Assembly: GCF_011764585.1 (NCBI RefSeq)
Contig: NZ_AP022853.1
Location: 665,501 to 729,500, forward strand
From: Sulfurimicrobium lacus
GTDB taxonomy: Bacteria > Pseudomonadota > Gammaproteobacteria > Burkholderiales > Sulfuricellaceae
Direction of reading: 5' to 3'
DNA length: 64,000 bases
Shown here in pieces: positions 13,975 to 60,523 of the stretch. The translations under genes and the position numbers were made by a program. Below the pieces are notes generated by a model. It had not been told where the DNA came from. It saw only the letters and a list, made by a program, of their open reading frames with translations, and did no database searches. Position 1 is the stretch's first letter; every line of letters begins with the position of its first letter.

Positions 13975-14052
13975 ACTCAGCCTTCAGCATTCAGTTGTCA
14001 GCAAAACCATGACAACAACGGCTGATCGCGCTGACAACTGATAACTGACAGC
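13975..14052. repeat. Heptanucleotide TCAGCNN inverted-repeat element between nuoF and nuoG
   Basis: TCA triplets recur at exactly 7-nt steps (13977, 13984, 13991, 13998), and the complementary TGA triplets recur at 14032, 14039 and 14046, with a further one at 14023. The two halves form an imperfect inverted repeat around the centre at about 14010. It fills the whole 90-bp nuoF-nuoG gap; no gene is present. The same element type occurs at 44497 and 52914. Confidence 0.85.
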
Positions 14053-14057
14053 TAACT

Positions 14058-16421
14058 ATGGCCCACATCGAAATCGACGGCAGACAGGTAGAAGTAAAAG
14101 ACGGCAGCACCGTAATGGATGCGGCACGTCAGGCGGGAATTTATATTCCGCACTTCTGCTATCACAAGAAACTGTCCATCGCCGCCAATTGCCGCATGTG
14201 CCTGGTGCAGGTGGAGAAGGCCCCCAAGCCCTTGCCAGCCTGTGCGACACCAGTGACCGATGGCATGAAAGTGTTCACGCGTTCAGAGTCTGCTATCCGT
14301 GCGCAAAAAGGGGTGATGGAGTTTTTGCTCATCAACCACCCGCTGGATTGCCCGATCTGCGATCAGGGCGGTGAATGCCAGTTGCAGGATCTGGCCGTCG
14401 GCTACGGCGAGGTGGCATCGCGTTACCAGGAAGAGAAACGGGTAGTCAGCAACAAGGAACTGGGGCCGCTGATTTCCACCGACATGACGCGCTGTATCCA
14501 CTGTACCCGCTGCGTACGCTTCGGCCAGGAAATCGCCGGCATCATGGAACTGGGCCAGGCGGGACGCGGCGAACATTCCGAAATCATGCCGTTCGTCGAG
14601 CGCACGGTGAATTCCGAACTATCCGGCAACATGATCGATCTGTGCCCAGTGGGCGCATTGACCAGCAAGCCGTTCCGTTACTCCGCCCGCTCCTGGGAGT
14701 TGACCCGGCGCGCTTCGGTCAGCCCGCACGACAGCCTCGGCGCCAATCTGGCTGTGCAGGTCAAGGGCAACCGCGTCTATCGCGTCGTGCCGCGCGAGAA
14801 TGAAGCCGTCAACGAGTGCTGGCTGTCCGACAAGGATCGTTTTTCCTACGAAGGCCTGAACTCCGCGCAGCGCCTCACGCAACCCATGATGAAACGTCAT
14901 GGTGAATGGCAGGAATGCAGCTGGCAGACCGCGCTGGAGTATGTGGCGAATGGCCTGAAACGCATTCGCGACGATCATGGCGCCGCCCAGATCGGCGCGC
15001 TTGCGACGCCGCACAGCACGCTGGAAGAGCTTTATCTGCTGCAGAAATTCATGCGCGGGATCGGCAGCGGCAACGTGGATCACCGCACACGCCAGTCCGA
15101 TTTTCGTCTCGATGGCGCCCTGCAGGGCGCGCCATGGCTCGGTCAGAGCATTGCTGTGCTGGCGGAAGTGAAGAGCGCGCTGGTCATCGGCAGCACGCTG
15201 CGCAAGGATCACCCGCTACTCGCACAACGCCTGCGTCAGGCGGTCAAAGCGGGCGCCGAGTTGAACCTGGTGAATCCGGTGGACGACGACCTGCTCACCA
15301 AAGTGGCCAACAAGCTGATCGTGGCCCCTAACGACCTGGTCAATGCCTTGTCCCAAGTGCTGAAAGCACTGGCAGAACTTAAGCAGACTGCAGTTCCCCA
15401 AGCGCTGGCAGGGGTGAGCGTGTCCTCCGCGGCGACGGCCATGGCCGCCAGCCTGTCGGCCGCTCCGACTGCCACGGTGTTGCTGGGCAATCTGGCGCAG
15501 CACCATCCGCGTTACAGCGAACTGCATGGCTTGGCACAGGAAATTGCGCGTCTGTCAGGCGCCACCCTGGGTGTACTGGGTGAAGCCGCCAACAGCGTCG
15601 GCGCCTGTCTTGCCGGAGCTGTCCCTTATGCCGGTCCGCTGGGCAAGGACGTCAGCGCCGGCATGAATGCTGCGGAGATGCTGGCTACACCACGTCTGGC
15701 CTATGTTCTGCTGAATACCGAAATCGAACTCGATAGCCATGATCCGCAACAGGCCATGCAAGCGATGGAACATGCGGAACTGGTGGTGGCGTTAAGCGCT
15801 TACCGCCATCAGGCGCTGAATTACGCCGATGTGCTGCTGCCGATTGCACCGTTTACAGAAACGTCCGGTACCTTCATCAATACCGAGGGCCGGGCGCAAA
15901 GTTTCAACGCCGTGGTCAAGCCACAGGGCGACGCCCGCCCGGCATGGAAAGTGATGCGCGTGCTGGGGAACATGTTCAATCTCAACGGCTTCGATTACAA
16001 CAGTTCGGAAGATGTGCGCGCTGAAATTCTTGCTGCCGGCGCGACGTCCCTGCATGAGGCGTGTAACAACCAGTTGCAGAGTGTTGTGCTGGGCGATGCG
16101 GCGGTCGCTGTTGCGAGCGGCGTGCAACGCATTGCCGAAGTGCCGATTTACCAGGCCGATGCCGTGGTGCGGCGCGCCGATTCCCTGCAATGCAGCCATG
16201 ACGGCGCAGCGCCGGATGCCGTCATGAACGGCGCCCTGCTGCGACAACTGCAAGTGGAGGACGGGGCAATGGTGGTGGTGCACCAGGGTGGCGGCAGCGC
16301 CGTGATGCGCGCCAGACGCGACGACACATTGCCTTTGGGTTGCGCTAGGGTCGCCGTAGGGCACCCCCTGACAGCCGCCCTGGGTTCGATGTTTGGCGAA
16401 ATTGTGGTAGAGAAGGCCTGA
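14058..16421 (+). CDS. nuoG: NADH-quinone oxidoreductase subunit G
   Basis: The 787-residue catalytic subunit carries the N-terminal [2Fe-2S] ferredoxin domain (CYHKKLSIAANCRMC and the later CATP, residues about 34-62), the His-Cys3 cluster motif in HPLDCPICDQGGEC, two tetrads of Cys for [4Fe-4S] clusters (CIHCTRC and CPVGAL) and a molybdopterin-oxidoreductase-like C-terminal domain. It hands electrons from NuoEF to NuoI. No sign of the extra N7 cluster ligands is seen. It follows the repeat element by only a few bases, and the ATG at 14058 lacks a clear purine-rich ribosome binding site. Confidence 0.96.
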   Translation: MAHIEIDGRQVEVKDGSTVMDAARQAGIYIPHFCYHKKLSIAANCRMCLVQVEKAPKPLPACATPVTDGMKVFTRSESAIRAQKGVMEFLLINHPLDCPICDQGGECQLQDLAVGYGEVASRYQEEKRVVSNKELGPLISTDMTRCIHCTRCVRFGQEIAGIMELGQAGRGEHSEIMPFVERTVNSELSGNMIDLCPVGALTSKPFRYSARSWELTRRASVSPHDSLGANLAVQVKGNRVYRVVPRENEAVNECWLSDKDRFSYEGLNSAQRLTQPMMKRHGEWQECSWQTALEYVANGLKRIRDDHGAAQIGALATPHSTLEELYLLQKFMRGIGSGNVDHRTRQSDFRLDGALQGAPWLGQSIAVLAEVKSALVIGSTLRKDHPLLAQRLRQAVKAGAELNLVNPVDDDLLTKVANKLIVAPNDLVNALSQVLKALAELKQTAVPQALAGVSVSSAATAMAASLSAAPTATVLLGNLAQHHPRYSELHGLAQEIARLSGATLGVLGEAANSVGACLAGAVPYAGPLGKDVSAGMNAAEMLATPRLAYVLLNTEIELDSHDPQQAMQAMEHAELVVALSAYRHQALNYADVLLPIAPFTETSGTFINTEGRAQSFNAVVKPQGDARPAWKVMRVLGNMFNLNGFDYNSSEDVRAEILAAGATSLHEACNNQLQSVVLGDAAVAVASGVQRIAEVPIYQADAVVRRADSLQCSHDGAAPDAVMNGALLRQLQVEDGAMVVVHQGGGSAVMRARRDDTLPLGCARVAVGHPLTAALGSMFGEIVVEKA

Positions 16422-16424
16422 TCG

Positions 16425-17453
16425 ATGGAATTTTTTCAATCCTTGCTGGGGCCTTTCTGGCCGATCATCTGGACGCTGGTGAAGATCGTCGTCATCGTCG
16501 GACCGCTGCTTCTGGGTGTGGCCTATGTCACCTACGCCGAGCGCAAGGTGATCGGTTACATGCAGGTGCGCATCGGACCCAACCGGGTAGGCCCCTTGGG
16601 GCTGCTGCAGCCGATCGCGGACGGTCTGAAGCTGATGATGAAGGAAATCATCATTCCCAGCGGCGCCAACAAGAAGCTTTTTCTGCTCGCACCCGTCATG
16701 TGCATGGCGCCGGCCCTGGTCGCCTGGGCCGTGATTCCGTTCACCCCGGAACTGGTCCTGGCCAACATCGATGCCAGTCTGCTGTTCATCATGGCCATTA
16801 CTTCCATGGGCGTGTATGGCGTGGTGCTCGCGGGCTGGTCCTCCAATTCCAAGTATCCTTTCCTCGGCGCAATGCGTTCCGCAGCACAGATCGTGTCGTA
16901 TGAGATCGCCATGGGTTTCGCCCTGGTCGGCGTGTTGATGGCCGCGCAGAGCCTGAACCTGGTCGAGATCGTCAAAGCCCAGCAGGGGGTGTCATTCTTC
17001 AGCTGGTACTGGTTGCCGCTGTTCCCCATGTTCCTGGTATACCTGATTTCATCGGTCGCGGAGATCAACCGCGCGCCGTTCGACGTGGCTGAGGGCGAAT
17101 CCGAAATCGTCGGTTTCCATGCCGAATATTCAGGCATGGCATTTGCCGTGTTCTTTCTCGCCGAATACGCCAACATGATTTTGGTGGCGACCCTGTCTGC
17201 GCTGTTGTTCCTCGGTGGCTGGCTACCCTTGTTCGATTTCGCGCCGTTCACCTGGATTCCCGGTTTCTTCTGGCTGATGGCCAAGATATGTTTCGTGCTG
17301 TTCCTGTTCCTGTGGTTCCGGGCGACCTTCCCCCGTTACCGCTACGACCAGATCATGCGCCTGGGCTGGAAAGTGTTCATTCCGGTGACGCTGGTATGGC
17401 TGCTGTTTATCGGCGGCATGATGCAGACCCCGCTGGGTTATTTGTTCCACTGA
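16425..17453 (+). CDS. nuoH: NADH-quinone oxidoreductase subunit H
   Basis: A 342-residue inner-membrane subunit with eight predicted helices that lines the quinone tunnel. The signature [20 protein letters not shown] (about 37-56) and the acidic loop [20 protein letters not shown] (about 213-232) are intact. It lies 3 bp after nuoG. Confidence 0.98.
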
Positions 17454-17463
17454 GCATGTAGAT

Positions 17464-17955
17464 ATGATGAACCGCCTTAATGCATTCTTCAAAAGTCTGC
17501 TCCTGATCGAACTGCTCAAGGGCATGGCCCTGACCGGACGTTATCTGTTCGCGCGCAAGATCACGGTGCAGTTCCCGGAGGAACGTACTCCCATGTCGCC
17601 GCGCTTCCGCGGCCTGCATGCGCTGCGCCGTTATCCCAACGGCGAAGAGCGCTGCATCGCCTGTAAATTGTGCGAGGCGGTATGCCCGGCGCTGGCGATC
17701 ACCATCGACATGGAAGAACGCGCCGACGGTACGCGCCGTACCACGCGCTACGACATCGACCTGACCAAATGCATTTTCTGCGGTTTTTGCGAAGAGTCCT
17801 GCCCGGTCGACTCTATCGTGGAAACGCGAATTTTCGATTACCACGGTGAAAAACGCGGCGATCTGAACTACAACAAGGCCATGCTGCTGGCCGTGGGCGA
17901 CAAGCATGAAGAACAGATTGCCCGCGACAAGGCTGCAGATGCCCCATACCGTTAA
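17464..17955 (+). CDS. nuoI: NADH-quinone oxidoreductase subunit I
   Basis: A 163-residue 8Fe-8S ferredoxin-like subunit with clusters N6a and N6b. The two binding motifs are [12 protein letters not shown] (about 61-72) and [12 protein letters not shown] (about 100-111). The amphipathic N-terminus attaches to the membrane arm. A tandem ATG at 17464 and 17467 leaves the exact start open by one residue. Confidence 0.98.
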
Positions 17956-17990
17956 TCAAGCAGCGCTAGTCATTTGACAGGATTCGGTTA

Positions 17991-18641
17991 ATGAATTTTG
18001 AAACAATAATATTTTATCTCTTTGCGGCGATCCTGGTGTTTGCCGCAGCACGCGTGGTGACCGCGCGTAACCCGGTGCATTCCGCCCTGTTTCTGGTGCT
18101 GGCTTTTTTTACCGCTGCCGCCCTGTGGATTACGCTGGAGGCTGAGTTCCTGGCAATCACGCTGGTGCTGGTGTACGTGGGTGCTGTGATGGTGTTGTTC
18201 CTGTTCGTGGTGATGATGCTCGATATCAACTACGACCTGCTACGCGAAGGTTTCTGGGAGAATTTTCCCTACGCGCTGACGGTGGCGATATTGATGGGCG
18301 CGGAAATGGTACTGGTACTGGCCGGACGCAATTTCTGGGCGAACGGCAACGGCGGCATGCCGAACGCGCATGGCGCGGGTTATAGCAATATCAAGGAATT
18401 GGGCCGCCTGATTTATACCGACTACGTCTACCCGTTCGAGATCGCCTCGGTCATTTTGCTGGTGGCGATCGTTGCGGCCATCGCGCTTACGCTGCGCCAC
18501 CGCAAAGATACCAAATATCAGGACCCGGCCGCACAGATCGCGGTGCGTCGTAACGATCGTTTGCGCATCATCGCGGTTTCGTCGGATAACAAGTTGAAAC
18601 AACAGGCGGCAGAAGACAGCCCGTCGGCAGAGCAACCTTGA
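17991..18641 (+). CDS. nuoJ: NADH-quinone oxidoreductase subunit J
   Basis: A 216-residue membrane subunit with five helices in the first 165 residues, including the conserved [24 protein letters not shown] region with the pi-bulge helix TM3. The last 45 residues form a charged soluble tail. It belongs to the proton-pumping arm. Confidence 0.97.
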
Positions 18642-18651
18642 GGAGCCACTG

Positions 18652-18957
18652 GTGCTGACACTTTCTCATTATCTGGTTCTGGGCGCGATCCTGTTCGCCA
18701 TCAGCGTGCTGGGGATTTTTCTCAACCGCAAGAACGTCATTGTCATTCTTATGGCGATCGAGTTGATGCTCCTGGCGGTGAACATGAATTTCGTGGCGTT
18801 TTCCCATTATCTCCACGATACGGCGGGGCAGATTTTCGTCTTCTTCATTCTCACCGTGGCCGCGGCCGAAGCTGCGATCGGTCTGGCTATTCTGGTGGTG
18901 CTGTTCCGCAATCTGAGCACGATCAACGTGCAAGACCTGGATCACTTAAAGGGATAA
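18652..18957 (+). CDS. nuoK: NADH-quinone oxidoreductase subunit K
   Basis: A 101-residue three-helix MrpC-like subunit starting at GTG 18652 after aggagcc. The two membrane glutamates needed for proton transfer are in [10 protein letters not shown] (E36 region) and [10 protein letters not shown] (E72 region). Length and sequence are standard. Confidence 0.98.
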
Positions 18958-18992
18958 CAGTCGGTATCACGCGTCGATGACTGAAAAACAAC

Positions 18993-20984: not shown

Positions 20985-21011
20985 TGAGCTACAGAGCAAT
21001 TTAGGGAAGTT

Positions 21012-41106: not shown

Positions 41107-41180
41107 AAGGGCGCGGATACTTTGATGGTCTCCGCGCCCTTTGATGGTCTCCGCGCCCTTTGATGGTCTCCGCGCCCTTT
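41107..41180. terminator. Terminator with a triplicated 3' arm
   Basis: AAGGGCGCGGA (41107-41117) pairs with TCCGCGCCCTT, and that arm occurs three times (41131, 41150 and 41169) within three exact copies of a 19-nt unit TTTGATGGTCTCCGCGCCC (41121-41177). It lies between the transporter gene and the convergent ispH gene, so it may stop transcription from both sides. Confidence 0.85.
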
Positions 41181-41184
41181 GTGT

Positions 41185-42545: not shown

Positions 42546-43018
42546 GGTTTTCCGGCTCCGGGTTTGCGCAAGCTATCCCACACCAGCAGGATCACCCCGC
42601 CGGTAATGGCCATGTCGGCGACGTTGAAAGCCGGCCAGTGGTAGTTGCCGTAATAGAAATCGAGGAAGTCCACCACGTAACCCCAGTGGATGCGGTCGAC
42701 CAGGTTGCCCAGCGCGCCGCCCAGCACCAGGCTCAGCGCCAGGCCGAACAGGGTTTGCCGGCCGTGCTTGCGCAGCAGGTGCAGGATCACGGCGGAAGCC
42801 AGTGCCGCGACGGTGATGAAGAACAGGCGCTGCCACCCGCCCGCCGCGGCGAGAAAACTGAACGCGGCGCCGCTGTTGTGGGCCAGCACCAGGTTGAAGT
42901 ACGAAGTGACGGGACTGCTCTCGCCGAAGCTGAAAGCCTGCACGATCCAGTGCTTGGTCAACTGGTCGAGCACGATCACCAGCGCGCTGGGCACCAGCCA
43001 CAGGCGCCAATCACGCAT
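42542..43018 (-). CDS. lspA: Lipoprotein signal peptidase
   Basis: A 158-residue inner-membrane aspartic protease with four helices. The conserved [10 protein letters not shown] motif (17-26) and the catalytic pair D108 (GNLVDR) and D117 (VVDFLDFY) are present. It cleaves prolipoprotein signal peptides such as those of Pal. It overlaps ileS by 8 bp. Confidence 0.97.
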
Positions 43019-45800
43019 GGGAACGCGCCTCGCCCGAGCCGAACAGGTTGGCGTCGCAACGCCCGCACAGGGTCGGGTGTGCGGCGTTCTTGCCCACGTC
43101 GGCGCGGTAGTGCCAGCAGCGCTCGCATTTCTGGTGCGGGCTGGACGCGACCAAGACTTTTTCCTCGGCGGCCTGGACCAGTCTGGCCTGGGAAGTGATC
43201 AGCACGAAGCGCAGGTCGTCGTCCAGGCTCTGCAGCAAGCCAAACAGCTCGCCGCTGACCTGAACCTCGACCTCGGCCTGCAGCGAGGAACCGATCGCAC
43301 CGGAAACCCGCACCGCCTCCAGCTCCTTGGTGACGCGAGCGCGGAAATCACGGATTTGCTGCCATTTCGCCAGCAGTTCGGTGCTTTCGGGAAGCGCCGG
43401 GAAGTCGTGCCAGGTGTGGAAAAACACGCTGTCGTCGGTTTTGCCGGTGAGCGCGCTCCACGCTTCCTCCGCGGTGAAGCTGAGAACCGGCGCCATCAGG
43501 CGCAGCAGGCTGTGGGTGACGTGGTAGAGCGCGTTTTGCGCCGCGCGGCGCGCCCTGGAGTCCTTGCCCGCGGTATAGAGGCGGTCTTTCAGGATGTCCA
43601 GGTAGAAGCCGCCCAGGTCTTCCGAGCAGAAAGCGGTGAGCTTCTGCGCCACCAGGTGGAATTCGTAGCGGCTGTAATCGGCCGCCACATCGTCCTGGAA
43701 CGACTGTGCCAGCGCCAGGGCGTAGCGGTCGATTTCCAGCCAGTCCTCGACCGGCAGGGCGTGCTGCGCCGGGTCGAAGTCCGCCAGGTTGGCGAGCAGG
43801 AAGCGCAGCGTGTTGCGGATGCGGCGATAGCCCTCGGTCACGCGCTTGAGAATCTCGTCGGAGATGGTCAGTTCGCCGGAGTAGTCGGTGCTCGCCACCC
43901 ACAGGCGCAGGATGTCCGCACCCAGCGTGTCCATTACCTTCTGCGGCGCGACCACGTTGCCCTTGGACTTGCTCATCTTGTGGCCGTTGCCATCCACCAC
44001 GAAACCGTGGGTGAGCAGCGCCTTGTAGGGCGCATGGCCGTCGGTGGCGCAGCCGGTGAGGAGCGAGGACTGGAACCAGCCGCGATGCTGGTCGGAGCCT
44101 TCCAGGTACAGGTCGGCGGGGTGGGCCAGGTAGTCGCGCCGTTTCAGCACGCAGGCGTGGCTCGAACCGGAATCGAACCACACGTCGAGGGTGTCGCTCA
44201 CCTTCTTGTAGGTGGCGGCATCGGCGCCCAGCAGTTCTGTAGCGTCGAGGCTGAACCAGGCCTCGATGCCCTGTTGCTCCACGCGCTGGGCCACCTGCTC
44301 CAGCAGTTCCTGGGTGCGCGGGTGCAGCGCGCCCGATTCCTTGTGTACGAACAGCGGCATCGGCACGCCCCAGTTGCGCTGGCGCGACACGCACCAGTCG
44401 GGGCGGTTCTTGATCATGGCCTCCAGCCGGGCGCGTCCCCATGAGGGGAAGAACTCGGTGTTCTCGACGGCTTTCATCGCCGCCTCCCTCAAGGTGGCTG
44501 ACTGACCGCTGACAACTGATCGCTGACGGCTGATATTCATGCCGATGAACCACTGATGCGTGGCGCGGAAAATGATCGGCGTCTTGTGGCGCCAGCAGTG
44601 GGGATAGCTGTGCAGCAGCTTCTCGTTCTTGAGCAGCGAGCCGTTGGTGTTGAGGATTTCCAAGACCGTTTTATTTGCCGCCCAGATGGACTGGCCGCCG
44701 ACCAGCGGGGTGCGCTCGAAGAACTTGCCGTCGTCGCCCACCGGGCAATCGACGGCCAGCTTGTATTTGCTGCCGATCACATAGTCGTCCTGGCCGTGAG
44801 CCGGGGCCGTATGCACCAGCCCGGTACCGGCGTCGAGGGTCACATGTTCGCCGCAGATGATGGGCACAACGCGCTCGTAGAACGGGTGCTGCAACTGCAG
44901 GTGCTCCAGCGCGGCACCCTTGACCACCGCCACCACTTCGACGGCCTCGAAACCATAGCGCTGGATGCAGGCCTCGGCCAGATCGTGCGCCAGGATGAGG
45001 ATGCCTTTCGGCGTCTGGACCAGGTCGTAGTCGAATTCGGGATGGACGGAAACGGCCTGGTTGGCGGGCAGGGTCCATGGCGTGGTGGTCCAGATCACCG
45101 CGTAAACCGGCTGTGATGGGATCTTCATGCCGAGCGCTTGGGCCAGCGCGGCGACATCTTTCACCGCAAAGGCCACGTCGATGGCGGGCGAAGTCTTGTC
45201 CTCGTATTCCACCTCGGCTTCCGCCAGCGCCGAGCCGCAGTCGATGCACCAGTGCACCGGCTTCTGCCCCTGGTAGAGGTAGCCGTTGGCGTGGATGCGT
45301 CCGAGGGTGCGCATGATGTCGGCTTCGAACTTGAAATCCATGGTGCGGTAGGGATCGTCCCACTCGCCCAGCACACCGAGGCGGATGAAGTCGGCCTTTT
45401 GGCGCTCGATCTGCGACTGCGCATAATCGCGGCACAGTTCGCGGAAGCGGGAGGCGGGAATTTCCTTGCCGTGCTGCTTCTCCACCTGCAGTTCGATCGG
45501 CAGGCCGTGGCAGTCCCAGCCCGGCACATAGGGTGCATCGAAACCGGCCAGGGTCTTGGAGCGGACGATGATGTCCTTGAGGATCTTGTTGACCGCGTGG
45601 CCGATGTGGATGTCGCCGTTGGCATAGGGCGGGCCGTCGTGCAGCACGAACTTGGGGCGGCCCGCGCTGGCGGCGCGGATGCGCTGGTAGAGTTTTTTAT
45701 CCTGCCACTGCTTGACCCACGCCGGCTCGCGCTTGGCGAGATCGCCGCGCATCGGGAAGGGCGTGTCGGGCAAGTTCAGTGTGTCTTTGTAATCAGCCAT
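43011..45800 (-). CDS. ileS: Isoleucyl-tRNA synthetase
   Basis: A 929-residue class I synthetase with HIGH at 65-68, KMSKS at 608-612 and a C-terminal zinc-finger motif (CERCWHY and later CGRC). The editing domain lies between. Odd feature: residues about 424-436, after FIGMN and before LREAAMKA, are encoded by a TCAGCNN heptanucleotide repeat that keeps the frame, giving a Ser/Gln/Val-rich stretch. The rest is intact. It ends where lspA begins. Confidence 0.97.
44497..44533. repeat. Heptanucleotide TCAGCNN element read in frame within ileS
   Basis: TGA triplets on the plus strand recur at 44503, 44510, 44517, 44524 and 44531 (7-nt steps), with another at 44499. On the coding strand this reads TCAGCCG, TCAGCGA, TCAGTTG, TCAGCGG and TCAGTCA. 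It is the same unit as at 13975 and 52914 and supplies codons of ileS. Confidence 0.85.
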
Positions 45801-51900: not shown

Positions 51901-52893
51901 TTACTTCTGCAGCAGGTAATCGACGTAGCGTTCCACGCCCTGTTCGACGGTGTAGAGCGGCGTGTCGTAGCCGGCGTCGCGCAGCGCCGAAATGTCGGCC
52001 TGGGTGAAGCTCTGGTACTTGCCCTTGAGCGCTTCAGGGAAGGCGACGTATTCGACGATGCCCTGCTGCTGTAGCTGCGCCAGCGTCAGGGCGACTTCTC
52101 CCTTAGCCTTGCGGCAGGCGTTGACGGCGGCCACGGCGACGTCGTTGAACGCCTGGCTACGGCCGGTGCCGAGGTTGAAAATGCCGGACTGGTCGGGGTG
52201 GTCGAGGAACCACATGTTGATCTTGACCACGTCTTCCACCGAGACGAAATCGCGCCGCTGCTCGCCGTTGGCGTAGCCTTCGCAGCCTTCGAACAGCTTG
52301 ACCTTGCCTTCCGCCTGGTACTGGTTGAAGAAGTGGAAGGCCACCGAGGCCATGCGGCCCTTGTGCTGTTCGCGCGGACCGTACACGTTGAAGTAGCGGA
52401 AGCCGACGATCTGGCCGGTCTTTTCCGCCCACATGCGGCGCACGTACTGGTCGAAGAGGAATTTGGAGTAGCCGTAGACGTTGAGCGGGCCTTCGTATTC
52501 GCGCGACTCCTTGAAGATGCTGCCAGCACCGTACACGCTGGCGGAGGAGGCGTAGAGGAAGGGGACTTCCTCGTTCTGGCAGTGTTCGAGCAGGGACACG
52601 GTGTAGCGGTAGTTGTTCTCCATCATGTAGCGTCCGTCGGTCTCCATGGTGTCGGAGCACGCGCCTTCATGGAACACGGCCTGCATGGAGTCGTCGAACG
52701 CCCCGTCCAGCACCGCGTCGAGGAAGTCTTCCTTGTCCATGTAGTCCGCGATTTCGCAGTCCACCAGGTTCTTGAACTTGTCCGCCTTTTTCAGGTTGTC
52801 CACCGCGATGATGTTGGTCTCGCCGCGCTCGTTGAGGGCCTTGACGATGTTGGCGCCGATAAAGCCCATGGCGCCGGTGACGATGTAGTACAT
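51901..52893 (-). CDS. hldD: ADP-L-glycero-D-manno-heptose 6-epimerase
   Basis: A 330-residue short-chain dehydrogenase-like epimerase for the lipopolysaccharide heptose. The NADP site is [12 protein letters not shown] (6-17), and the YGYSK motif (about 139-143) carries the catalytic Tyr and Lys. It acts after the heptose kinase encoded next door at 52977. Confidence 0.97.
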
Positions 52894-52913
52894 GTGTTTA
52901 TCCTTTTTAAGTA

Positions 52914-52976
52914 ATCAGCTATCAGCTGTCAGCAATCAGCTAAACCACCAAAAATCTGATGGCTGACCGCTGATGG
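52914..52976. repeat. Heptanucleotide TCAGCNN inverted-repeat element between hldD and hldE
   Basis: TCA triplets lie at 52915, 52922, 52929 and 52936, and complementary TGA triplets at 52957, 52964 and 52971, all at 7-nt steps. Together they form an imperfect inverted repeat, the clearest copy in the window. It fills the gap between the two heptose genes; no gene is present. Confidence 0.88.
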
Positions 52977-53900
52977 CTACCCAAACAATTCTTCGCGGCT
53001 CACTACTGCCGTGCCCAGCTTGCCGACCACGATACCTGCAGCCTTGTTGGCCATGCGCATCGCTTCCGGCAGGTCGGCACCGGATGCCAGCATCACGCCC
53101 AGGGTGGCGATCACGGTGTCGCCGGCGCCGCTGACGTCGAACACTTCGCGCGCCAGGGCGGGTTCGGTGAGGGCTTCGCCGTCGCGATACAGTGTCATGC
53201 CTTCTTCGCTACGCGTCACCAGCAGGGCCTGGAGGTTGAGTTGCGTGCGCAGTTGCTGCGCCTTGCGCGTCAGTTCCTCTTCGTTTTTCCAACCCCCGGC
53301 AACCTGTCGGAATTCGCCCCGGTTGGGGGTGAGCAGGGTGGCGTTGCGGTAGCGCTCGTAATCCTCGCCCTTGGGGTCGGCCAGGACCGGCTTGCCGGCC
53401 GCGCGCGCCAGTTCGATCATGCGCGCGATGTGGGTCAGGCCGCCCTTGCCGTAGTCGGACAGGATCACCACGTCGGTATCGCCCAGCATGCGCTCGAAAT
53501 CCGCCAGCTTGTTTTGCAGGACTTCATGGCCCGGCCAGGTTTCGAAGTCGATGCGCAGCAGTTGCTGCTGGCGTCCGATGACGCGCAGCTTGATGGTGGT
53601 GTCGAGACCGGCATCGCGGTGCAGCACCACGTTGATGTTTTCGTGCGTCAGCAGGCGCGCGAGGTTGTCGCCCGCCTCGTCGGTGCCCGCTACCGAGAGC
53701 AGCGCCACTTTCGCACCCAAGGCGGCGGCATTGCGCGCCACGTTGGCCGCGCCGCCGGGGCGCTCCTCGGTTTTGCTCACATGGACTACCGGTACCGGTG
53801 CCTCCGGGGAAATGCGGCTGACCTCGCCGAACCAGTAGCGGTCGAGCATGACGTCGCCCACTACCAGGACGCGGGCCTGTTTCAACTCCTCACTCCTCAC
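52977..53900 (-). CDS. hldE: D-glycero-beta-D-manno-heptose 7-phosphate kinase
   Basis: A 307-residue PfkB-family kinase equal to the N-terminal domain (RfaE1) of E. coli HldE; the nucleotidyltransferase half is absent and must be encoded elsewhere. EAPVPVVHVSKTEERPGGAANVARN and FDVSGAGDTVIATL (with the catalytic Asp) are present. The start is GTG 53900, the first possible codon after an in-frame stop, and it lies inside an ACTCCTC heptanucleotide repeat that supplies the first five codons and the GAGG ribosome binding region. Confidence 0.93.
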   Translation of the reverse strand: MRSEELKQARVLVVGDVMLDRYWFGEVSRISPEAPVPVVHVSKTEERPGGAANVARNAAALGAKVALLSVAGTDEAGDNLARLLTHENINVVLHRDAGLDTTIKLRVIGRQQQLLRIDFETWPGHEVLQNKLADFERMLGDTDVVILSDYGKGGLTHIARMIELARAAGKPVLADPKGEDYERYRNATLLTPNRGEFRQVAGGWKNEEELTRKAQQLRTQLNLQALLVTRSEEGMTLYRDGEALTEPALAREVFDVSGAGDTVIATLGVMLASGADLPEAMRMANKAAGIVVGKLGTAVVSREELFG

Positions 53901-53913
53901 CCCTCACTCCTCA
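53886..53913. repeat. Heptanucleotide ACTCCTC repeat at the start of hldE
   Basis: Four units ACTCCTC/ACCCCTC with TCA at 53890, 53897, 53904 and 53911. On the minus strand it reads as GAGGAGT units and provides both the ribosome binding sequence and the GTG start region of hldE. A related array lies at the start of cmk (60486). Confidence 0.85.
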
Positions 53914-53918
53914 ACTAT

Positions 53919-55241
53919 TTACAGTCTTCCAATCGGGAAATATTCCAGTCCCTGCTCGCGCACCATTTTCGGCTCGTACAGGTTGCGTCCGTCGAAGATC
54001 ACCGGAGTCTTGAGGTTGGACTTGATGACGCCGAAATCGGGCGCGCGGAACTCCTTCCATTCGGTGACGATGGCCAGGGCATCCGCATCGGCCAGCGCCG
54101 CAGCGGGGGAGTCCACCAGCTTCAGGCGCGGGTCGTCGCCGTAAATGCGATGCGTTTCTTCCATGGCGGCGGGGTCGTAAGCCGATACTGTCGCGCCCAT
54201 TTTCCACAGGCCTTCGATCAGCACGCGGCTGGGGGCCTCGCGCATGTCGTCGGTGTTGGGCTTGAACGCCAGACCCCACAGCGCGATGCGCTTGCCGGAC
54301 AGGTCGCTGCCGAATTTCTGCGTGATCTTTTTCAGCAGAATGTGCTTCTGCTCGTCGTTGGCATCTTCGACCGCTTTCAAGACCTGCAACTCGACGCCGT
54401 TGGCACGCGCGGTGCGCTGCAGCGCCTGCACGTCCTTGGGGAAGCAGGAGCCGCCGTAGCCGCAACCGGGGTAGAGGAAGTGGTAGCCGATGCGCGGGTC
54501 GGAGCCGATGCCGTGACGCACGTGCTCGATGTCGGCGCCGAGGATTTCCGCCAGGTTGGCGAGCTCGTTCATGAACGAGATGCGCGTGGCCAGCATGGCA
54601 TTGGCGGCGTATTTGGTGAGTTCGGCGGACTTGATGTCCATCACGATCAGGCGTTCGTGGTTGCGCTGGAATGGCGCGTAGAGCGCGCGCATCAGGTCGG
54701 TCGCCTTGGCGTTGTCGGTTCCCACCACGATGCGGTCGGGGCGCATGAAGTCTTCCACCGCCGCGCCTTCCTTGAGGAACTCCGGGTTGGACACCACGCT
54801 GAAATCGAGCTTCGAGCCGCGTTTCTGCAGTTCTTCCTGCACTGCTGCGCGCACGCGGTCCGCAGTGCCGACCGGTACCGTGGATTTGTCCACGATGACC
54901 TTGTATTCGTTCATGTTCTGACCGATGGCGCGTGCCGCGGCGACCACGTATTGCAGGTCGGCGGAGCCGTCCTCGTCGGGCGGAGTGCCCACCGCGACGA
55001 ACTGGATCACGCCGTGGGCAGCGCTTTCCGCCACGTCGGTGGTGAAGCGCAGGCGGCCGGCAGCCTGGTTGCGTTGCACCATGTCTTCCAGACCGGGTTC
55101 GTAAATGGGGATCTGGCCTTGCTTGAGCATGCCGATCTTGCGTTCGTCAAGGTCCAGGCAGACCACATCGTTGCCGACTTCCGCCAGGCAAGTGCCCGTC
55201 ACGAGGCCGACATAGCCGGTTCCAATTATGCTGATTTTCAC
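53919..55241 (-). CDS. ugd: UDP-glucose 6-dehydrogenase
   Basis: A 440-residue NAD-dependent enzyme that oxidises UDP-glucose to UDP-glucuronate for polysaccharides. The nucleotide site is [12 protein letters not shown] (4-15) and the catalytic Cys is in [18 protein letters not shown] (near residue 262). [13 protein letters not shown] and [16 protein letters not shown] are typical. ATG 55241 overlaps the pyrF stop (ATGA). Confidence 0.97.
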
Positions 55242-55951
55242 TTTGAGTCTCCGATGGTTGCAATTTCCTGCCGGATGGCCTGCAGCGCCTGCAGGGGGTC
55301 CGGCGCCTGGGTGATGGGTCGTCCGATCACCAGATAATTCGATCCCGCGCGCAGCGCTTCTGCCGGGGTCATGACGCGGTTCTGGTCGTCTTTTGCCGCG
55401 CTGGCGGGACGGATGCCGGGCGTCACCAGGCAGAAGTCCGGCCCTTGTTCCTGCCGCAACACTGCTGCTTCCTGGGCGGAACAGACTACGCCGTCAAGAT
55501 GACAGCTGTGCGCCAGGCCGGCCAGTCGCCGCACCAGTTGTTGAGGTGCTTCGCTGATGCCCAGGTCGGCCAGGTCATTCGCGCCCATGCTGGTGAGGAC
55601 GGTGACGGCGATCAGCTTGGGGCGGTTGGGCGTGGCATCTATGGCTTCGCGCGCAGCGCTCATCATGGCGCGGCCTCCCAATGCGTGAACGTTGACCATC
55701 CACACGCCGAGAGCGGCCGCCGCCTTGCATGCCTGGGCCACGGTGTGGGGGATGTCGTGAAATTTCAGGTCGAGGAATACGCCGTAGCCCTGTCCGACCA
55801 GGTGCTCCACCCAGGCCGGGCCGGCGGCGGTGAACAGTTCCTTGCCGACCTTCAGTTTGCACAGCTGTGGGTCGAGCCGGGCTACCAGTGCGGATGCCGC
55901 CTCCGTGGTGGCGTAATCCAGCGCCACGATGATTTTCGGGTCGCTTGTCAT
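55238..55951 (-). CDS. pyrF: Orotidine 5'-phosphate decarboxylase
   Basis: A 237-residue enzyme making UMP. The catalytic segment [14 protein letters not shown] (about 58-71) has the Asp-Lys-Asp array, and VTPGIRP with [10 protein letters not shown] close the active site. ATG 55951 overlaps the lapB stop (ATGA). Confidence 0.97.
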
Positions 55952-57120
55952 GTGAGATCCTGATCTTCGGTGCGTTTCGGGGGGAAGCTTTCCCAGCCGC
56001 CGCAAGCGGGGCAGTGCCAATGAAATTGCCGCGCCTTGAAGCCGCAGTTCTCGCAGCGGTAGAGCGCGAGGCGCTGGCTGTGCTGGTGGATGAGGTTCTT
56101 CACCAGGGCAATGTCCTGGCGGCGTTCGGCGGGGGCATCCAGCAGCGCGGCTTCGAGCAGTTTGTCCAGCCCGAGCAGGCTGGGGTTGCGCCGCAGCTCG
56201 TCGCGCACCAGCTCATAGGCGGCGCGCGGACCATCCTGCTCCAGTGCGGCCTGAAATGCAGTGCTTAACAGGTCGATGGAGGGCGCCTGAGCGAGGTAGT
56301 TGCGCAGCAGGGCGAGGCCTTCAGCGTTTTGTCCCAGCGCGCGATAACTGGCCAGCAGGCGTCCCGCTGCCAGCGGCAGGTAAGCCGGATTCTGGGTTTC
56401 GATGAGCTTCCAGAACTGGATGGCCGAAGCGTGGCGGTTGGCTTGCGCCTCCATGTCTCCCAGCATCAGGTTGGCGCGCGCGCAAGCTCGAGCGGTTTGC
56501 AAGGCCTGCTCGAGGTGGCTGCGTGCGGCATCCAGCGCCGAACGGGCGATTTCGCTTGCTGCGAGTTCGCAGTAGAACTGGGCGATTTCGCGCTGGAAAG
56601 AGGTGGGAGAAGTAGCGCTAAGCTGTTGCGCAATGGCAATGGCGTTTTCCCATTCGCGCTCCTGTTCATATATTTCCAGCAGGAACTTGCGTGCCTGTTC
56701 GCCGTAAGCCGACTGGCTCATGCCGCTGAAAACCTGTTCCGCACGGTCCAGCAGGCCGGCCTTGAGATAATCCTGGCCAAGCTCGAAGGTGGCTTTCAGT
56801 TTCTTGTCGGCGTCCAGGTCGGTGCGCGCCACCAGGGTCTGGTGCATGCGGGTGGCGCGCTCCACCTCGCCGCGACGGCGGAACAGGCTGCCCAGGGCGA
56901 AATGCAGTTCCACCGTTTCCGGATCGGCGCGAACCACTTCGATAAACGATTCGATCGCCTTGTCCTGCTGTTCGTTGAGCAGAAAGTTCAGGCCCCTGAA
57001 ATACGAATCCGGCAGGTTGCGGGATTCGGACTGGATGTGCTTGATGTCGATGCGTGCGGCGAGCCAGCCGAGGCTGAAAAACAGCGGTAAGGCAAGCAGC
57101 CACCAGTATTCAAATTCCAT
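55948..57120 (-). CDS. lapB: LPS assembly protein LapB
   Basis: A 390-residue protein (YciM) with an N-terminal membrane helix ([21 protein letters not shown]-like), nine or so TPR repeats, and a C-terminal rubredoxin-type metal site with CENCG and CPACG. It tunes LpxC turnover and LPS synthesis. ATG 57120 follows lapA by overlap, the usual order. Confidence 0.95.
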
Positions 57121-57436
57121 CGTCAGCCTGCCGTGTGGTGAATGCCGGGGTGTTCGTGGCATGCTCGGAAACTTGCGCTTTCACTGGCGCATGCAGGTTG
57201 CGCAATTCGCGCCGCAGTTTGGCTGTTTCGCGCCGTTGCTTGAATATGAATCCGAGCGACGCGGCAATGCCGGCGCCCGCGCCAACGCAGAATACGGTCA
57301 GCACAACCACCACCAAAGGCGCCTGCCACTGGTAGCCGAGAAAATAGTGCAGGGTCACCGGTTCGCTGTTCTTGATGGCAAAGCCTAATGCCAGCATGAA
57401 AAGCACGATGCCGAAAACCCAGGAAAGATAACGCAT
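57110..57436 (-). CDS. lapA: LapA domain protein (DUF1049)
   Basis: A 108-residue membrane protein with two helices (about 5-22 and 40-65) and a charged soluble tail, matching the LapA family that precedes lapB. FAIKNSEPVTLHYFLGYQWQAPL is the family pattern. It overlaps lapB by 11 bp and probably acts with it at the inner membrane. Confidence 0.92.
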   Translation of the reverse strand: MRYLSWVFGIVLFMLALGFAIKNSEPVTLHYFLGYQWQAPLVVVVLTVFCVGAGAGIAASLGFIFKQRRETAKLRRELRNLHAPVKAQVSEHATNTPAFTTRQADDGI

Positions 57437-57542
57437 GTTTTTTTATATGGGCGTTAACAAGCGTGGACAGGAAGCATGGGCCGGCTTCTGTAAAAACTCG
57501 AGAATCATGTTTACCCGTTCAGCTATTCAAATAAAAAAGCGA

Positions 57543-57578
57543 AATAAAAAAGCGGCACAATCTTGCGATAATGCCGCC
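57543..57578 (-). terminator. Terminator downstream of ihfB
   Basis: On the minus strand GCGGCA and TGCCGC (57572-57577 and 57552-57557) form a 6-bp stem with a 14-nt loop, followed by TTTTTTATTT. It lies about 35 bp after the ihfB stop. The rest of the 176-bp gap to lapA shows nothing else certain. Confidence 0.75.
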
Positions 57579-57612
57579 ATCTTAACTTACCGGCAAGCTG
57601 CGCCAGTTAATT

Positions 57613-57897
57613 CTATTCTGGATAGTCTACTCGTTCCCGCAATTCCTTGCCTGCCTTGAAATGCGGAACGAATTTTTCAGGTACGCTGACTTTGCCACCG
57701 GTTTTTGGGTTACGGCCAACACGTGGAGGGCGGTAGTTCAGGCTGAAACTGCCGAAGCCGCGAATCTCGATACGTTCGCCCTGGGCCAAGCTTTCCGCCA
57801 TGGCTTCCAGAACAGTTTTGACCGCGAGCTCCGCATCCTTCGCTACCAATTGCGGATAGCGTGCCGCCAACTTGTTAATCAGTTCTGACTTGGTCAT
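57613..57897 (-). CDS. ihfB: Integration host factor subunit beta
   Basis: A 94-residue DNA-bending protein of the HU/IHF family. The beta-arm signature [22 protein letters not shown] (about 46-67) with the intercalating Pro is canonical. It pairs with IHF alpha for transcription and replication control. It follows rpsA by 60 bp, as in most betaproteobacteria. Confidence 0.97.
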
Positions 57898-57957
57898 GAA
57901 TATTCCCTGCTTGAGTCGGCCGGCCGGGGTGAGCTCCGGCCGGCCTCCGCTCGAACC

Positions 57958-59667
57958 TTACTGGCCGCTGTTTTTGTTGTCCAGCTTGGCTTTCAGCAGG
58001 GCACCCAGGTTGGTCGTACCGGCGCTGGCAGCGCTTTGCTCGCTGGCCATCTTGTGCATCGCGTCGGTCTCGTCAGCCATGTCCTTGGCTTTGATGGACA
58101 GGCTGATGTTGCGGTTCTTGCGGTCCACGCTGATGATCTTGGCCTCGACTTCGTCGCCTTCCTTGAGGTGGCTGCGAATGTCTTCGACGCGATCGCGGGA
58201 AACTTCGGAAGCGCGCAGGTAACCTTCCACTTCTCCGTCCAGGGAGATGGTAGCGCCCTTGGCGTCAATTGCCTTGACCGTGCCCTTGACGATGTCATTC
58301 TTGTCGTGGGTGGAGATGTAGTTGGAGAAGGGGTCACCATCCATCTGCTTGATGCCCAGAGAGATGCGCTCTTTCTCGGCGTCGATGGCCAGAACCACGG
58401 CTTCCACTTCGTCGCCCTTCTTGTAGTTGCGCACAGCTTCTTCGCCGGGCATGTTCCAGGACAGGTCGGAGAGGTGAACCAGGCCGTCGATGCTGCCCGG
58501 CAGGCCGATGAAGATACCGAAGTCGGTGATCGACTTGATCTGGCCGTGCACCTTGTCGCCCTTCTTGTGGCCGGCGGCAAATTCGTCCCATGGGTTGGGC
58601 TTGCACTGCTTCATGCCCAGGGAAATGCGGCGGCGTTCTTCGTCGATTTCCAGAATCATGACTTCGACTTCGTCGCCCAGGCTGACAACCTTGGCGGGGT
58701 GAACGTTCTTGTTGGTCCAGTCCATTTCGGACACGTGAACCAGGCCTTCGATGCCCTGTTCGATTTCCACGAATGCGCCGTAGTCGGTCAGGTTGGTCAC
58801 CTTGCCGAACATGCGGGTGCCTTGCGGGTAGCGGCGGGACAGGTTGACCCACGGATCGTCGCCCAGTTGCTTGATGCCCAGGGAGACGCGGTTCTTTTCC
58901 TGGTCGAACTTGAGGATCTTGGCTTCCACTTCGTCGCCCACGGTCAGCACTTCGGACGGATGCTTGACGCGGCGCCATGCCAGGTCGGTGATGTGCAGCA
59001 GGCCGTCGATGCCACCCAGGTCCACGAATGCGCCGTAGTCGGTGATGTTCTTGACGATACCCTTGACCACTGCGCCTTCTTTCAGGTTTTCCATCAGGGC
59101 CTGACGCTCGGCGCCCTGGCTGGCTTCCAGCACGGCACGACGCGAAACCACCACGTTGTTGCGCTTGCGGTCGAGCTTGATGACCTTGAATTCCATCTGC
59201 TTGCCCTGGTAAGGAGTCGTGTCCTTGACCGGGCGGATGTCCACCAGCGAGCCGGGCAGGAAGGCGCGAATACCGTTCACCGTCACGGTGAGGCCGCCCT
59301 TGACCGAGCCGCTGATCACGCCGGATACCAGCGTGCCTTCTTCCATGGCCTTGTCGAGGTCGTTCCAGGCCGCCATGCGCTTGGCTTTTTCGCGCGACAG
59401 CTTGGTCGAGCCGTAGCCGTCTTCCATGGCTTCGATGCAAACGCTGACGAAATCGCCAACTTTGACTTCGATTTCGCCCATGTCATTCTTGAATTCGTTG
59501 GCGTCGATCACGCTTTCGGACTTGAGGCCGGCGTTGACGATCACCACGTCGTTGTCCACAGACACGACTTCGGCGGTGATCAGTTCACCCGAGCGCATTT
59601 CCTGGCGTTGCAGGCTTTCTTCAAACAGGGCGGCAAAACTTTCGGAGGAGGCGGTAGCAGTAGTCAT
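57958..59667 (-). CDS. rpsA: 30S ribosomal protein S1
   Basis: A 569-residue protein with six S1 domains (repeated [21 protein letters not shown] segments) and the standard start [18 protein letters not shown]. It helps the 30S subunit load mRNAs. ATG 59667 has no clear Shine-Dalgarno site; instead the leader is T-rich (ATTTTATTTTTT), as is common for rpsA, which controls its own translation. Confidence 0.98.
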
Positions 59668-59740
59668 AAAAAATAAAATCCACAAACCCGTAATGAGCCA
59701 CGGGGCAAGTTGTTGAATGTCGGAACCTACAATGTTGCGG

Positions 59741-59790
59741 AAAAAGTTAAACGGCGCATTTGTGCCGGCCGGTTTGCCGGTAAACGCGCC
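59741..59790 (-). terminator. Terminator-like hairpin between cmk and rpsA
   Basis: On the minus strand GGCGCGTTT (59790-59782) pairs with AAATGCGCC (59761-59753), the loop itself containing the stem CCGG/CCGG, and GTTTAACTTTTT follows. It lies 46 bp after the cmk stop and could terminate or attenuate cmk transcription so that rpsA has its own promoter. Confidence 0.55.
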
Positions 59791-59836
59791 GCTTCAGGGT
59801 TCCGCAAAACCTTAATTCCAGACGCCTGGCGGCCGG

Positions 59837-60523
59837 TTATGCCTGATAACGCCTCAGCACCTCGTTGACCGCTGCGGCGATGGTGAGGGTGTCGGTGTCG
59901 AGCAGGCTTGCGTCCGCGCATTTCTGCAGGGGGGCGACGCTGCGTGCGCTGTCGCGCGCATCGCGTTGCTGGAGATCCTGCAAAATCTGCGAAAGATTAG
60001 CACGCATTCCTTTTTCCATCAACTGTTTATAGCGTCGTTCGGCACGTACTTCGGCGCTGGCGGTGAGGAAAATTTTAAGAGTGGCATCGGGAAATACCAC
60101 CGAGCCCATGTCGCGGCCGTCCGCCACCAGTCCCGGAGCCTTGCGGAAGCTGCGCTGGAACGCCAGCAGGGCTGCGCGCAAGCGCGGCAGCGAGGCGATT
60201 TTCGAGGCGGCGTTGCCGGATTCTTCGGTACGCACCGCTTCGCCGACTTGCGTTCCGTCCAGCCAGATTTCGCCGTTGTCGAAACTGACGTCCAGCTTGC
60301 CAGCCAGTTCGGCCAGCGCGTTTTCGTCATCCAGGGCGATGCCGGCGCGTTGCGCCGCGAGGGCGGTGACGCGGTAGATCGCACCGCTGTCGAGGTAATG
60401 GAAGCCTAGTTCTTTGGCCACCAGTGCGGCCACTGTGCCTTTGCCTGAAGCGGAGGGGCCGTCGATGGCGATGACCGGAATTGCAGGTGAGGAGTGAGGG
60501 GTGAGGGGTGAGGAGGCGTTCAT
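59837..60523 (-). CDS. cmk: Cytidylate kinase with a repeat-encoded N-terminal tail
   Basis: A 228-residue enzyme that phosphorylates CMP and dCMP. The P-loop GPSASGKGT (22-30) starts about ten residues later than is usual. The extra residues ([10 protein letters not shown], about 4-13) are encoded by a heptanucleotide ACTCCTC/ACCCCTC repeat. ATG 60523 is the only canonical start in this frame before the P-loop. [13 protein letters not shown] and [13 protein letters not shown] are typical of Cmk. Confidence 0.94.
60486..60515. repeat. Heptanucleotide ACTCCTC repeat encoding the cmk N-terminus
   Basis: TGA triplets at 60488, 60495, 60502 and 60509 mark four 7-nt units of GTGAGGA/GTGAGGG. It is the reverse orientation, relative to its gene, of the array at the start of hldE. 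Confidence 0.85.

What the first reader, a model, noticed from the sequence alone, without database searches (positions are those of the whole stretch)
13975..60515. Dispersed 7-nt periodic repeats placed in and between essential genes
Five loci carry arrays with an exact 7-nt period in two sequence families: TCAGCNN (13975-14052, 44497-44533, 52914-52976) and ACTCCTC/ACCCCTC (53886-53913, 60486-60515). Two of the TCAGC copies form large inverted repeats. Arrays occur in spacers, at translation starts and inside coding DNA. A period of 7 shifts the reading frame with every unit, so frame is kept only for certain copy numbers. This looks like a mobile or spreading short element tolerated in housekeeping genes, comparable in kind to heptanucleotide STRR arrays of cyanobacteria or the coding palindromic elements of Rickettsia. 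I do not know a described system in this group.
Basis: partly seen in the sequence, partly recalled or inferred. Interest (0 to 1): 0.8.

Follow-up and report, generated by a model that had tools for sequence, protein, structure and literature searches.

The report
Heptamer-armed hairpin elements linked to S23
Short arrays with an exact seven-letter rhythm scattered through this bacterium's genes look like pieces of a spreading hairpin element whose fuller form carries a small gene (S23) known from insertions in ribosomal RNA, which could help explain why seven-letter repeats are common in some bacteria.

Summary
All five arrays are at the stated places, and the genome holds many more: 126 overlapping hits to TCAGCNNx3, 0 for the reversed pattern. 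In 400 kb of evenly spaced genome, lag 7 gives 7 arrays; lags 4, 5, 8, 10, 11, 13, 16 and 17 give none. Of 33 TCAGC clusters listed, 26 are hairpins. Relatives show empty sites, or a different heptamer "dialect" at the same junction.

In this genome one TCAGC element carries, between its arms, a gene of the S23/23S-rRNA-intervening-sequence family (PF05635). Of 45 non-duplicate S23 loci, 30 have period-7 arrays on both sides, against 1 of 170 shifted windows. One lies inside a 23S rRNA gene. ORF-less arrays elsewhere on six S23 plasmids resemble the local S23 arms.

I conclude that the window's arrays are most likely ORF-less copies and single-arm remnants of S23-type elements that change length in 7-nt steps. 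Whether the S23 protein moves them is untested.

The parts
13971..14054 (+). TCAGC-dialect hairpin element in the nuoF-nuoG junction: left arm TCAG(C/T)NN x4 (13977-14004), loop with AAAACC, right arm of (A/G)CTGA units ending GCTAA just before the nuoG ATG
   Evidence: array in G000, G018, G016, G005, none or one unit in 14 of 18 readable family genomes
12648..13967 (+). nuoF, upstream neighbour
   Evidence: Pfam Complex1_51K
14058..16421 (+). nuoG, downstream neighbour
   Evidence: Pfam
44497..44533 (-). single TCAGCNN arm inside the ileS coding sequence, encoding about [12 protein letters not shown] near residue 425, where other family members have shorter stretches or other inserts
43011..45800 (-). 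ileS (IleRS, 929 aa), host gene of the coding array
   Evidence: Pfam tRNA-synt_1
52914..52976 (.). TCAGC-dialect hairpin element in the rfaE1-hldD spacer (left arm x4, loop AAACCACCAAAAATC, right arm)
   Evidence: other genomes have other palindromes, other heptamer dialects or short spacers here
53886..53913 (-). single GTGAGGR/YCCTCAC arm (x4) at the ugd-rfaE1 junction; the GTG taken as rfaE1 start by the ORF list lies in it
60486..60515 (-). single YCCTCAC arm (x4) coding the N-terminal extension [14 protein letters not shown] of Cmk
   Evidence: period-7 array at this place in 9 of 20 family genomes, in several dialects
51901..52893 (-). hldD-like epimerase gene
   Evidence: Pfam Epimerase; name inferred
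52977..53900 (-). rfaE1-like PfkB kinase gene
   Evidence: Pfam PfkB; name inferred
53919..55241 (-). ugd (UDP-glucose dehydrogenase family)
   Evidence: Pfam
59837..60523 (-). cmk (cytidylate kinase)
   Evidence: Pfam Cytidylate_kin

Best explanation
The arrays are ORF-less copies and broken single arms of a dispersed hairpin element. A full copy is an inverted repeat whose two arms are arrays of a 7-nt unit, most often four per arm. In the gene-bearing form the arms enclose a gene for an S23/23S-rRNA-intervening-sequence four-helix-bundle protein (PF05635). In the common short form they enclose a loop of roughly 5-60 nt. Copies spread mainly into gene junctions, arms grow and shrink by whole 7-nt units, and the unit sequence (dialect) differs between lineages. 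Shown: arms, polarity, S23 bracketing, shared dialect on six plasmids, sites with and without arrays. Inferred: that the short form derives from the gene-bearing form, and that copies move by a common machinery. Not shown: which protein moves them. My lean, because S23 resembles Avd of diversity-generating retroelements, is that S23 binds the folded element RNA or DNA and helps copy it.
For: (1) Own genome: at L005 (about G000:C1:292008-292420) a 119-aa PF05635 gene (E 7.2e-38) lies between a TCAGCNN arm and a GCTGA arm in what looks like a pilB-pilC junction (names inferred); sister genome G020 has the ortholog (66% identity) in the same place with arms. (2) 45 non-duplicate S23 loci: inverted arms scoring 20 or more in 33 of 45 against 3 of 170 shifted windows; period-7 arrays on both sides 30 of 45 against 1 of 170; either side 39 of 45. 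Five of the 45 share flanking DNA, so counted as one site the figures are 29 of 41 and 27 of 41. In six plasmid stretches 6 of 6 S23 genes score 20 or more against 0 of 132 other ORFs. (3) Dialects differ between S23 loci, yet 21 other arrays on six plasmid stretches resemble their own replicon's S23 arms: own is the best match for 11 of 21, about 3.5 expected, and of 720 permutations only the true one reaches the observed mean. By eye, G000's S23 arms are of its main dispersed dialect. (4) The Azospirillum copy lies inside LSU rRNA. (5) Fixed polarity in 39 of 39 inverted pairs (6 of the 26 TCAGC ones had been fetched with a pattern that presupposes it); shared loop cores. (6) Same junction, different dialect in sister genomes. 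(7) PMC4990558 (passages): tandem heptameric repeats precede the S23p ORF in the Coxiella 23S IVS. (8) PMC10053308 (passages): PF05635 resembles Avd.
Against: The window genome's own S23 locus scores 17, below the threshold of 20; the G020 ortholog scores 22. 12 of 45 S23 loci miss the threshold, and L559, L565, L566 and L589 have period-8 arms. Only one S23 gene was seen in the part of the G000 DNA that was held and searched, and no S23 gene with GTGAGG-type arms was noticed in G000. The GTGAGG family shows no clear outer end, and in the TCAGC family the end WTAGC is exact in only 27 of 64 arm ends. No target duplication was visible at the two junctions compared by eye. The two arms of one element are not copies of each other in the two variable positions (8 of 82 matches, 8.7 expected). 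One of 34 inverted pairs in the viral contigs has the opposite polarity. In 372 kb from 20 genomes of the class, one of them picked because it had TCAGC hits, period 7 gives 2 arrays and the other lags 0 or 1. No S23 relative was found in the phage collection at E 1e-5. S23 could be mere cargo.
Confidence: 0.57

Rival explanations
1. Pure slippage minisatellites: heptamer arrays arise and grow in place because polymerases slip most easily by seven bases; no element moves.
For: Lag 7 stands out among lags not divisible by 3 in the family and betaproteobacterial samples; long homogeneous arrays exist, such as a TCAGCAG array of about 15 units; the idea is in print (PMC4692102, passages, citing a 2007 study).
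Against: Fixed polarity of inverted pairs 39 of 39 in G000; a shared loop at distant loci and in two genomes; variable positions unrelated between the arms while the pentamer stays; S23 bracketing; one dialect at dozens of loci.
Confidence: 0.1
2. Selected RNA elements: hairpins at operon junctions are kept for a job (coupling, processing, stability, translation control), whatever their sequence.
For: High occupancy of hslV-hslU (14 of 18 by lag test, 15 by eye) despite dialect change, and an array or palindrome visible by eye at ugd-rfaE1 in all 21 family genomes, of which 9 pass the period-7 test; strong folding (12 of 12 elements tested beat all shuffles, z -3.97 to -8.62); a post-transcriptional role was proposed for TAACTGA repeats (PMC4679880, abstract and parts of section 5).
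Against: Other junctions are mostly without arrays (nuoF-nuoG 4 of 18, cmk 9 of 20); junction types are similar to background (25 co-directional, 12 convergent, 8 divergent against 105:47:44, crude gene calls, no test made); variable positions show no pairing constraint; arrays also sit in coding sequence.
Confidence: 0.15
3. S23 is only cargo: the elements are real and mobile, but an unidentified host factor moves them and S23 is a passenger that often sits between the arms.
For: In phage-like contigs L441 and L526 arms about 540 nt apart enclose DNA that by eye reads as other small genes; ORF-less copies far outnumber S23 genes in the G000 DNA held; the Coxiella S23p is probably not made in vivo (PMC4990558, passages).
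Against: S23 is bracketed in plasmids of cyanobacteria, Azospirillum, Gemmatirosa and Riemerella, which is a lot for a passenger; S23 resembles Avd, which is essential to retrohoming (PMC10053308, passages).
Confidence: 0.3
4. Ordinary REP/RAYT (REPIN) elements, or an IS-derived MITE.
For: Palindromes at gene junctions; TCAGC arm ends carry TA at many ends (WTAGC exact in 27 of 64); three Y1 transposase matches exist in the genome.
Against: Two of the three Y1_Tnp loci have no heptamer arrays within 1.5 kb. The third has one about 1.4 kb away and is itself flanked by a different palindrome. No target duplication was visible at two junctions read by eye; arms are tandem arrays of changing sequence rather than fixed ends.
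Confidence: 0.06

Closest known systems
23S rRNA intervening sequences (IVS) with S23/IVP ORF (PF05635)
   Same: S23 ORF between inverted arms forming a long hairpin; heptameric repeats next to the ORF in Coxiella (PMC4990558, passages); an Azospirillum copy inside LSU rRNA.
   Different: The IVSs I read about are in rRNA; here the same layout lies in gene junctions and many copies lack the ORF.
Heptameric SSRs of Xanthomonas (GGGAATC) and Nostoc (GGGGAYT), PMC4692102
   Same: 7-nt units with one or two free positions, intergenic, some in inverted pairs.
   Different: There read as G-quadruplex sequences, with slippage as a possible origin; no link to S23 in the passages I saw.
TAACTGA repeats of Beggiatoaceae, Cyanobacteria and Bacteroidetes, PMC4679880
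   Same: Heptamers close to start codons, also upstream of presumably essential genes, few canonical ribosome sites.
   Different: Described almost only as direct repeats (one inverted set of 170 in the main genome); regulatory reading; mechanism of spread left open.
Rickettsia palindromic elements (recalled; only a search listing)
   Same: Palindromes tolerated in-frame in essential genes.
   Different: No heptamer arms that I know of; recalled, not tested.
REP/REPIN with RAYT transposase (PMC3116915, listing and abstract start only)
   Same: Dispersed short palindromes, non-autonomous copies with a putative helper gene.
   Different: RAYT flanks here are other palindromes; the suspected helper is S23.

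Membership tests
S23/IVS-type element | S23 (PF05635) ORF between inverted arms | tested here: met
   Met for one locus of this genome and its sister (L005, L344), with the caveat that L005 scores 17, under the threshold of 20; the window's own arrays have no ORF
S23/IVS-type element | arms of heptamer arrays next to the ORF | tested here: met
   30 of 45 S23 loci have period-7 arrays on both sides, 39 of 45 on at least one
S23/IVS-type element | location in 23S rRNA with RNase III excision | tested here: inconclusive
   One relative (L563) is in LSU rRNA; the window's copies are in gene junctions or genes; excision not testable
S23/IVS-type element | ORF-less copies share dialect with the S23 copy | tested here: met
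   for six plasmid stretches; only by eye for G000 (TCAGC)
REP/RAYT (REPIN) | same palindrome flanks the RAYT gene | tested here: not met
   2 of 3 Y1_Tnp loci have none within 1.5 kb; 1 of 3 has an array about 1.4 kb away and another palindrome directly at the gene
IS-derived MITE | target site duplication | tested here: inconclusive
   None visible by eye at nuoF-nuoG or the leuB/leuD-like junction; TA at many TCAGC ends
Heptameric SSR / STRR | tandem arrays with a 7-nt unit, intergenic | tested here: met
   45 of 51 clusters intergenic by crude gene calls
TAACTGA repeats (MacGregor 2015) | direct repeats of that unit next to start codons | tested here: not met
   Unit is TCAGCNN or YCCTCAC and mostly in inverted pairs; single ACTGATA units occur in some arms

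The most novel reading that the evidence does not exclude
S23/IVP proteins and heptamer-array hairpins form one widespread class of mobile element, recognised by the rhythm and fold of its arms more than by a fixed sequence. The S23 protein, a relative of the retroelement partner Avd, helps copy the folded element (perhaps through RNA) into gene junctions, rRNA helices and phages. ORF-less copies are a source of the heptameric repeat excess reported in cyanobacteria, Xanthomonas and Beggiatoaceae, and 23S rRNA intervening sequences are just one landing site.
Probability: 0.28. Interest if true: 0.92.

Novelty: new variant of a known kind. Interest (0 to 1): 0.8.

Why it matters
Three loose ends have stood apart: why 7-nt repeats are over-represented in many bacteria, what the S23/IVP protein does, and where 23S rRNA intervening sequences come from. 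A shared element would tie them together and make each testable. It would also explain in-frame inserts in essential proteins (IleRS, Cmk), a changed start codon (rfaE1), and the turnover of operon junctions between sister species. It would add a non-autonomous element family whose arm sequence is free to change while its rhythm is kept.

Tried and rejected
RAYT/REPIN: Y1_Tnp found at three places; their flanks carry other palindromes. Arms as copies of each other by template switching: variable doublets match no more than chance. Terminators only: some loops look like A-run/T-run hairpins (L141, L131), but many do not (by eye). Genome-wide homogenisation of dialect: suggested by cmk and ugd-rfaE1, but single genomes hold several dialects in random stretches, so I do not claim it. 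Junction preference by gene orientation: none apparent (crude ORF-based gene calls). Rfam over the whole window: no match at gathering threshold. S23 in the INPHARED phages: none at E 1e-5. Direct homology of one plasmid Avd to S23 by my own profile is weak (E 0.011 in a search of two sequences), so the Avd link rests on PMC10053308. Literature searches that gave nothing useful. At the looser lag setting some nuoF-nuoG and ugd-rfaE1 windows without a lag-7 array give hits at lags 5, 8, 10 or 11 (6 of 18 and 5 of 21). Rows dropped before counts: duplicate S23 loci (9 of 54); the 6 loci, whose contigs recur; G016's IleRS row, read in a wrong frame; G020 and G013 at nuoF-nuoG, cut or misaligned; G008 at hslV-hslU, no N-terminus; L544 and L545 not scanned. 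Ten of the 30 plasmid records with S23 were not fetched.
Full report
What is there. The window lies in a 3.83-Mb genome held as one contig (G000:C1:665501-729500). By one protein, the nearest named relatives are MAGs labelled Sulfuricellaceae, Gallionella, Sulfuritalea and the like; the closest, 87% identical, is labelled only as a gammaproteobacterial MAG. The five arrays are present at the stated coordinates. Their hosts are the nuoF-nuoG junction, ileS, the hldD-rfaE1 spacer, the ugd-rfaE1 junction and the start of cmk.

Period. Counting 28-nt windows with at least 20 matches at a given lag, 400 kb of evenly spaced G000 sequence gives 7 arrays at lag 7 and none at lags 4, 5, 8, 10, 11, 13, 16 and 17 (1 at lag 14). 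The 80 named loci (1.31 Mb) give 26 at lag 7 and at most 3 at any of those eight lags (8 at lag 14); six relatives in the family give 2 to 8 each at lag 7. A separate test for inverted pairs found 16 at period 7 (some the same element seen from both arms), 2 at period 10 and none at periods 5, 8, 11 and 13 in the 80 loci. The excess is not universal: 372 kb from 20 genomes of the class, one of them (G145) picked because it had TCAGC hits, gave 2 at lag 7 and 0 or 1 at the other lags.

Anatomy. In the G000 loci fetched around the arrays and in the window, 39 inverted pairs were found (26 TCAGC, 13 GTGAGG) and all 39 have the same polarity: TCAGC left with GCTGA right, or GTGAGG left with CCTCAC right. 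Six of the 26 TCAGC loci had been found with a pattern that presupposes that polarity; in viral contigs it is 33 against 1. The TCAGC arms mostly have two to five units, most often four. In TCAGC arms the two spacer bases are free and differ between the arms (8 of 82 in-register matches, 8.7 expected). The unit outside the first TCAG unit is most often WTAGC (exact in 27 of 64 arm ends, from 26 G000 and 6 G020 elements); the GTGAGG family shows no such end. AAAACC or GGTTTT occurs in 11 of 39 loops against 0.34 expected from shuffling. The loop AAACCGGTTCTGCTCTT is shared by L007 and, inverted, L144, and related loops recur in G020. Of 12 elements folded, 12 beat all 200 dinucleotide shuffles. 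Among 51 array clusters placed by crude ORF calls, 45 are intergenic, and for many both neighbouring genes begin or end within about 30 nt.

Spread and turnover. TCAGCNNx3 occurs in 16 of 22 family genomes but in 18 of 274 genomes drawn from the class, G000 included. At nuoF-nuoG, of 18 readable family genomes 4 have an array, 2 a one-unit trace by eye and 12 none. At the cmk start 9 of 20 have an array, in several dialects, and 11 have one unit or none. At hslV-hslU 14 of 18 pass a loose period-7 test (15 by eye, in at least five dialects), 2 have other palindromes and 1 is empty. At ugd-rfaE1 an array or palindrome is visible by eye in all 21 family genomes, of many kinds; 9 of 21 pass the period-7 test. 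At one junction, apparently leuB/leuD (names inferred), G000 carries a GTGAGG hairpin and sister genome G020 a TCAGC hairpin between flanks that align closely. In another pair the similarity ends at the element (L349 against L044). By eye, at least 11 of the 72 named loci with both rfaE1 and hldD hits carry heptamer hairpins of other dialects in that spacer. IleRS shows in-frame inserts near residues 230 and 420 that differ between genomes.

The S23 link. The element at L005 in G000 encloses a 119-aa gene that matches PF05635 (23S rRNA-intervening sequence protein) at E 7.2e-38; G020 has the ortholog, 66% identical, in the same place. I therefore looked at S23 genes elsewhere. A tblastn search of plasmids found 30 records; I fetched 20 of them. 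Two viral-contig scans gave 6 and 32 loci, the second including the contigs of the first. The scored set was 20 plasmid loci, the 32 viral loci, L005 and L344. After removing 9 duplicates of 54, 45 loci remain: 33 have inverted arms scoring 20 or more (3 of 170 shifted windows), 30 have period-7 arrays on both sides (1 of 170), 39 on at least one side. Five of the 45 share flanking DNA and may be one site; counted once, the figures are 29 of 41 and 27 of 41. In six plasmid stretches 6 of 6 S23 genes pass and 0 of 132 other ORFs do. L559, L565, L566 and L589 have period-8 arms, and L564, L590 and L604 show no inverted pair. The G000 locus itself scores 17, below the threshold; G020 scores 22. 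An Azospirillum S23 locus with heptamer arms lies inside a large-subunit rRNA gene, that is, a classical intervening sequence. Twenty-one other arrays on six plasmid stretches resemble their own replicon's S23 arms: own is best for 11 of 21, about 3.5 expected, and only the true assignment of 720 permutations reaches the observed mean.

Literature. I read passages of PMC4692102 (heptameric repeats over-represented; Xanthomonas GGGAATC, some inverted pairs; slippage hypothesis), the abstract and two of five parts of section 5 of PMC4679880 (TAACTGA repeats), passages of PMC4990558 (the Coxiella IVS has tandem heptameric repeats before the S23p ORF, with strain-variable number, and older proposals that IVSs are mobile), passages of PMC10053308 (PF05635 resembles Avd) and passages of PMC6191907. 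In the titles and abstract starts listed by ten library searches I saw no paper that joins S23 to dispersed heptamer arrays; most subscription papers are not held. Solved S23-type structures are 2gsc and 2rld.

How it works, as I read it. Shown: a hairpin element with heptamer arms, a gene-bearing form with S23, a shared dialect on six plasmids, sites with and without arrays. Inferred: ORF-less copies derive from and spread with the gene-bearing form; slippage in 7-nt steps changes arm length; selection removes most insertions inside genes and leaves junctions. Unproven: the moving machinery. The resemblance of S23 to Avd suggests a step with RNA and a reverse transcriptase, which is a lead only.

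Check of this report.

Noticed in passing
L524 (IMGVR_UViG_3300045936_000120), 1-15515; L471 is part of it: A tailed-phage-like head gene cluster (terminase, portal, Mu-F, S78 protease, capsid) has 22 TCAGC array clusters in 15.5 kb, often 4+4 units a few nt after stop codons. Seventeen relatives at about 47-52% portal identity have no lag-7 array.
   Followed up: partly
L441:4857-5425 and L526:3404-3972: In a related phage-like contig the two arms lie about 540 nt apart and enclose DNA that by eye reads as small genes instead of a loop, as if the arms bracket cargo.
   Followed up: partly
L553, L558, L559: S23 genes sit inside CRISPR operons on cyanobacterial plasmids: between cas6 and cas4 beside type I-D genes, and within a Cmr operon.
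   Followed up: no
IleRS near residue 230 in G003, G008, G010, G011, G013, G020; near residue 420 in G010, G012, G021: Other in-frame inserts give peptides such as [13 protein letters not shown] and SPLTPLFQRGGG. That these come from other palindromic repeat families is my recollection, not tested.
   Followed up: no
L559, L565, L566, L589: S23 genes with arms of period 8 instead of 7.
   Followed up: no
L343 (G000 Y1_Tnp locus): A RAYT-like gene flanked by its own palindrome (GTAGGGTGGGCAAAG type), separate from the heptamer elements.
   Followed up: no
window 41120-41181: Perfect 19-nt tandem repeat, 3.3 copies, unit CTTTGATGGTCTCCGCGCC.
   Followed up: no
L605:3044-4540: The Anabaena plasmid that carries an S23 gene also has a reverse transcriptase gene next to avd (diversity-generating retroelement).
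   Followed up: no
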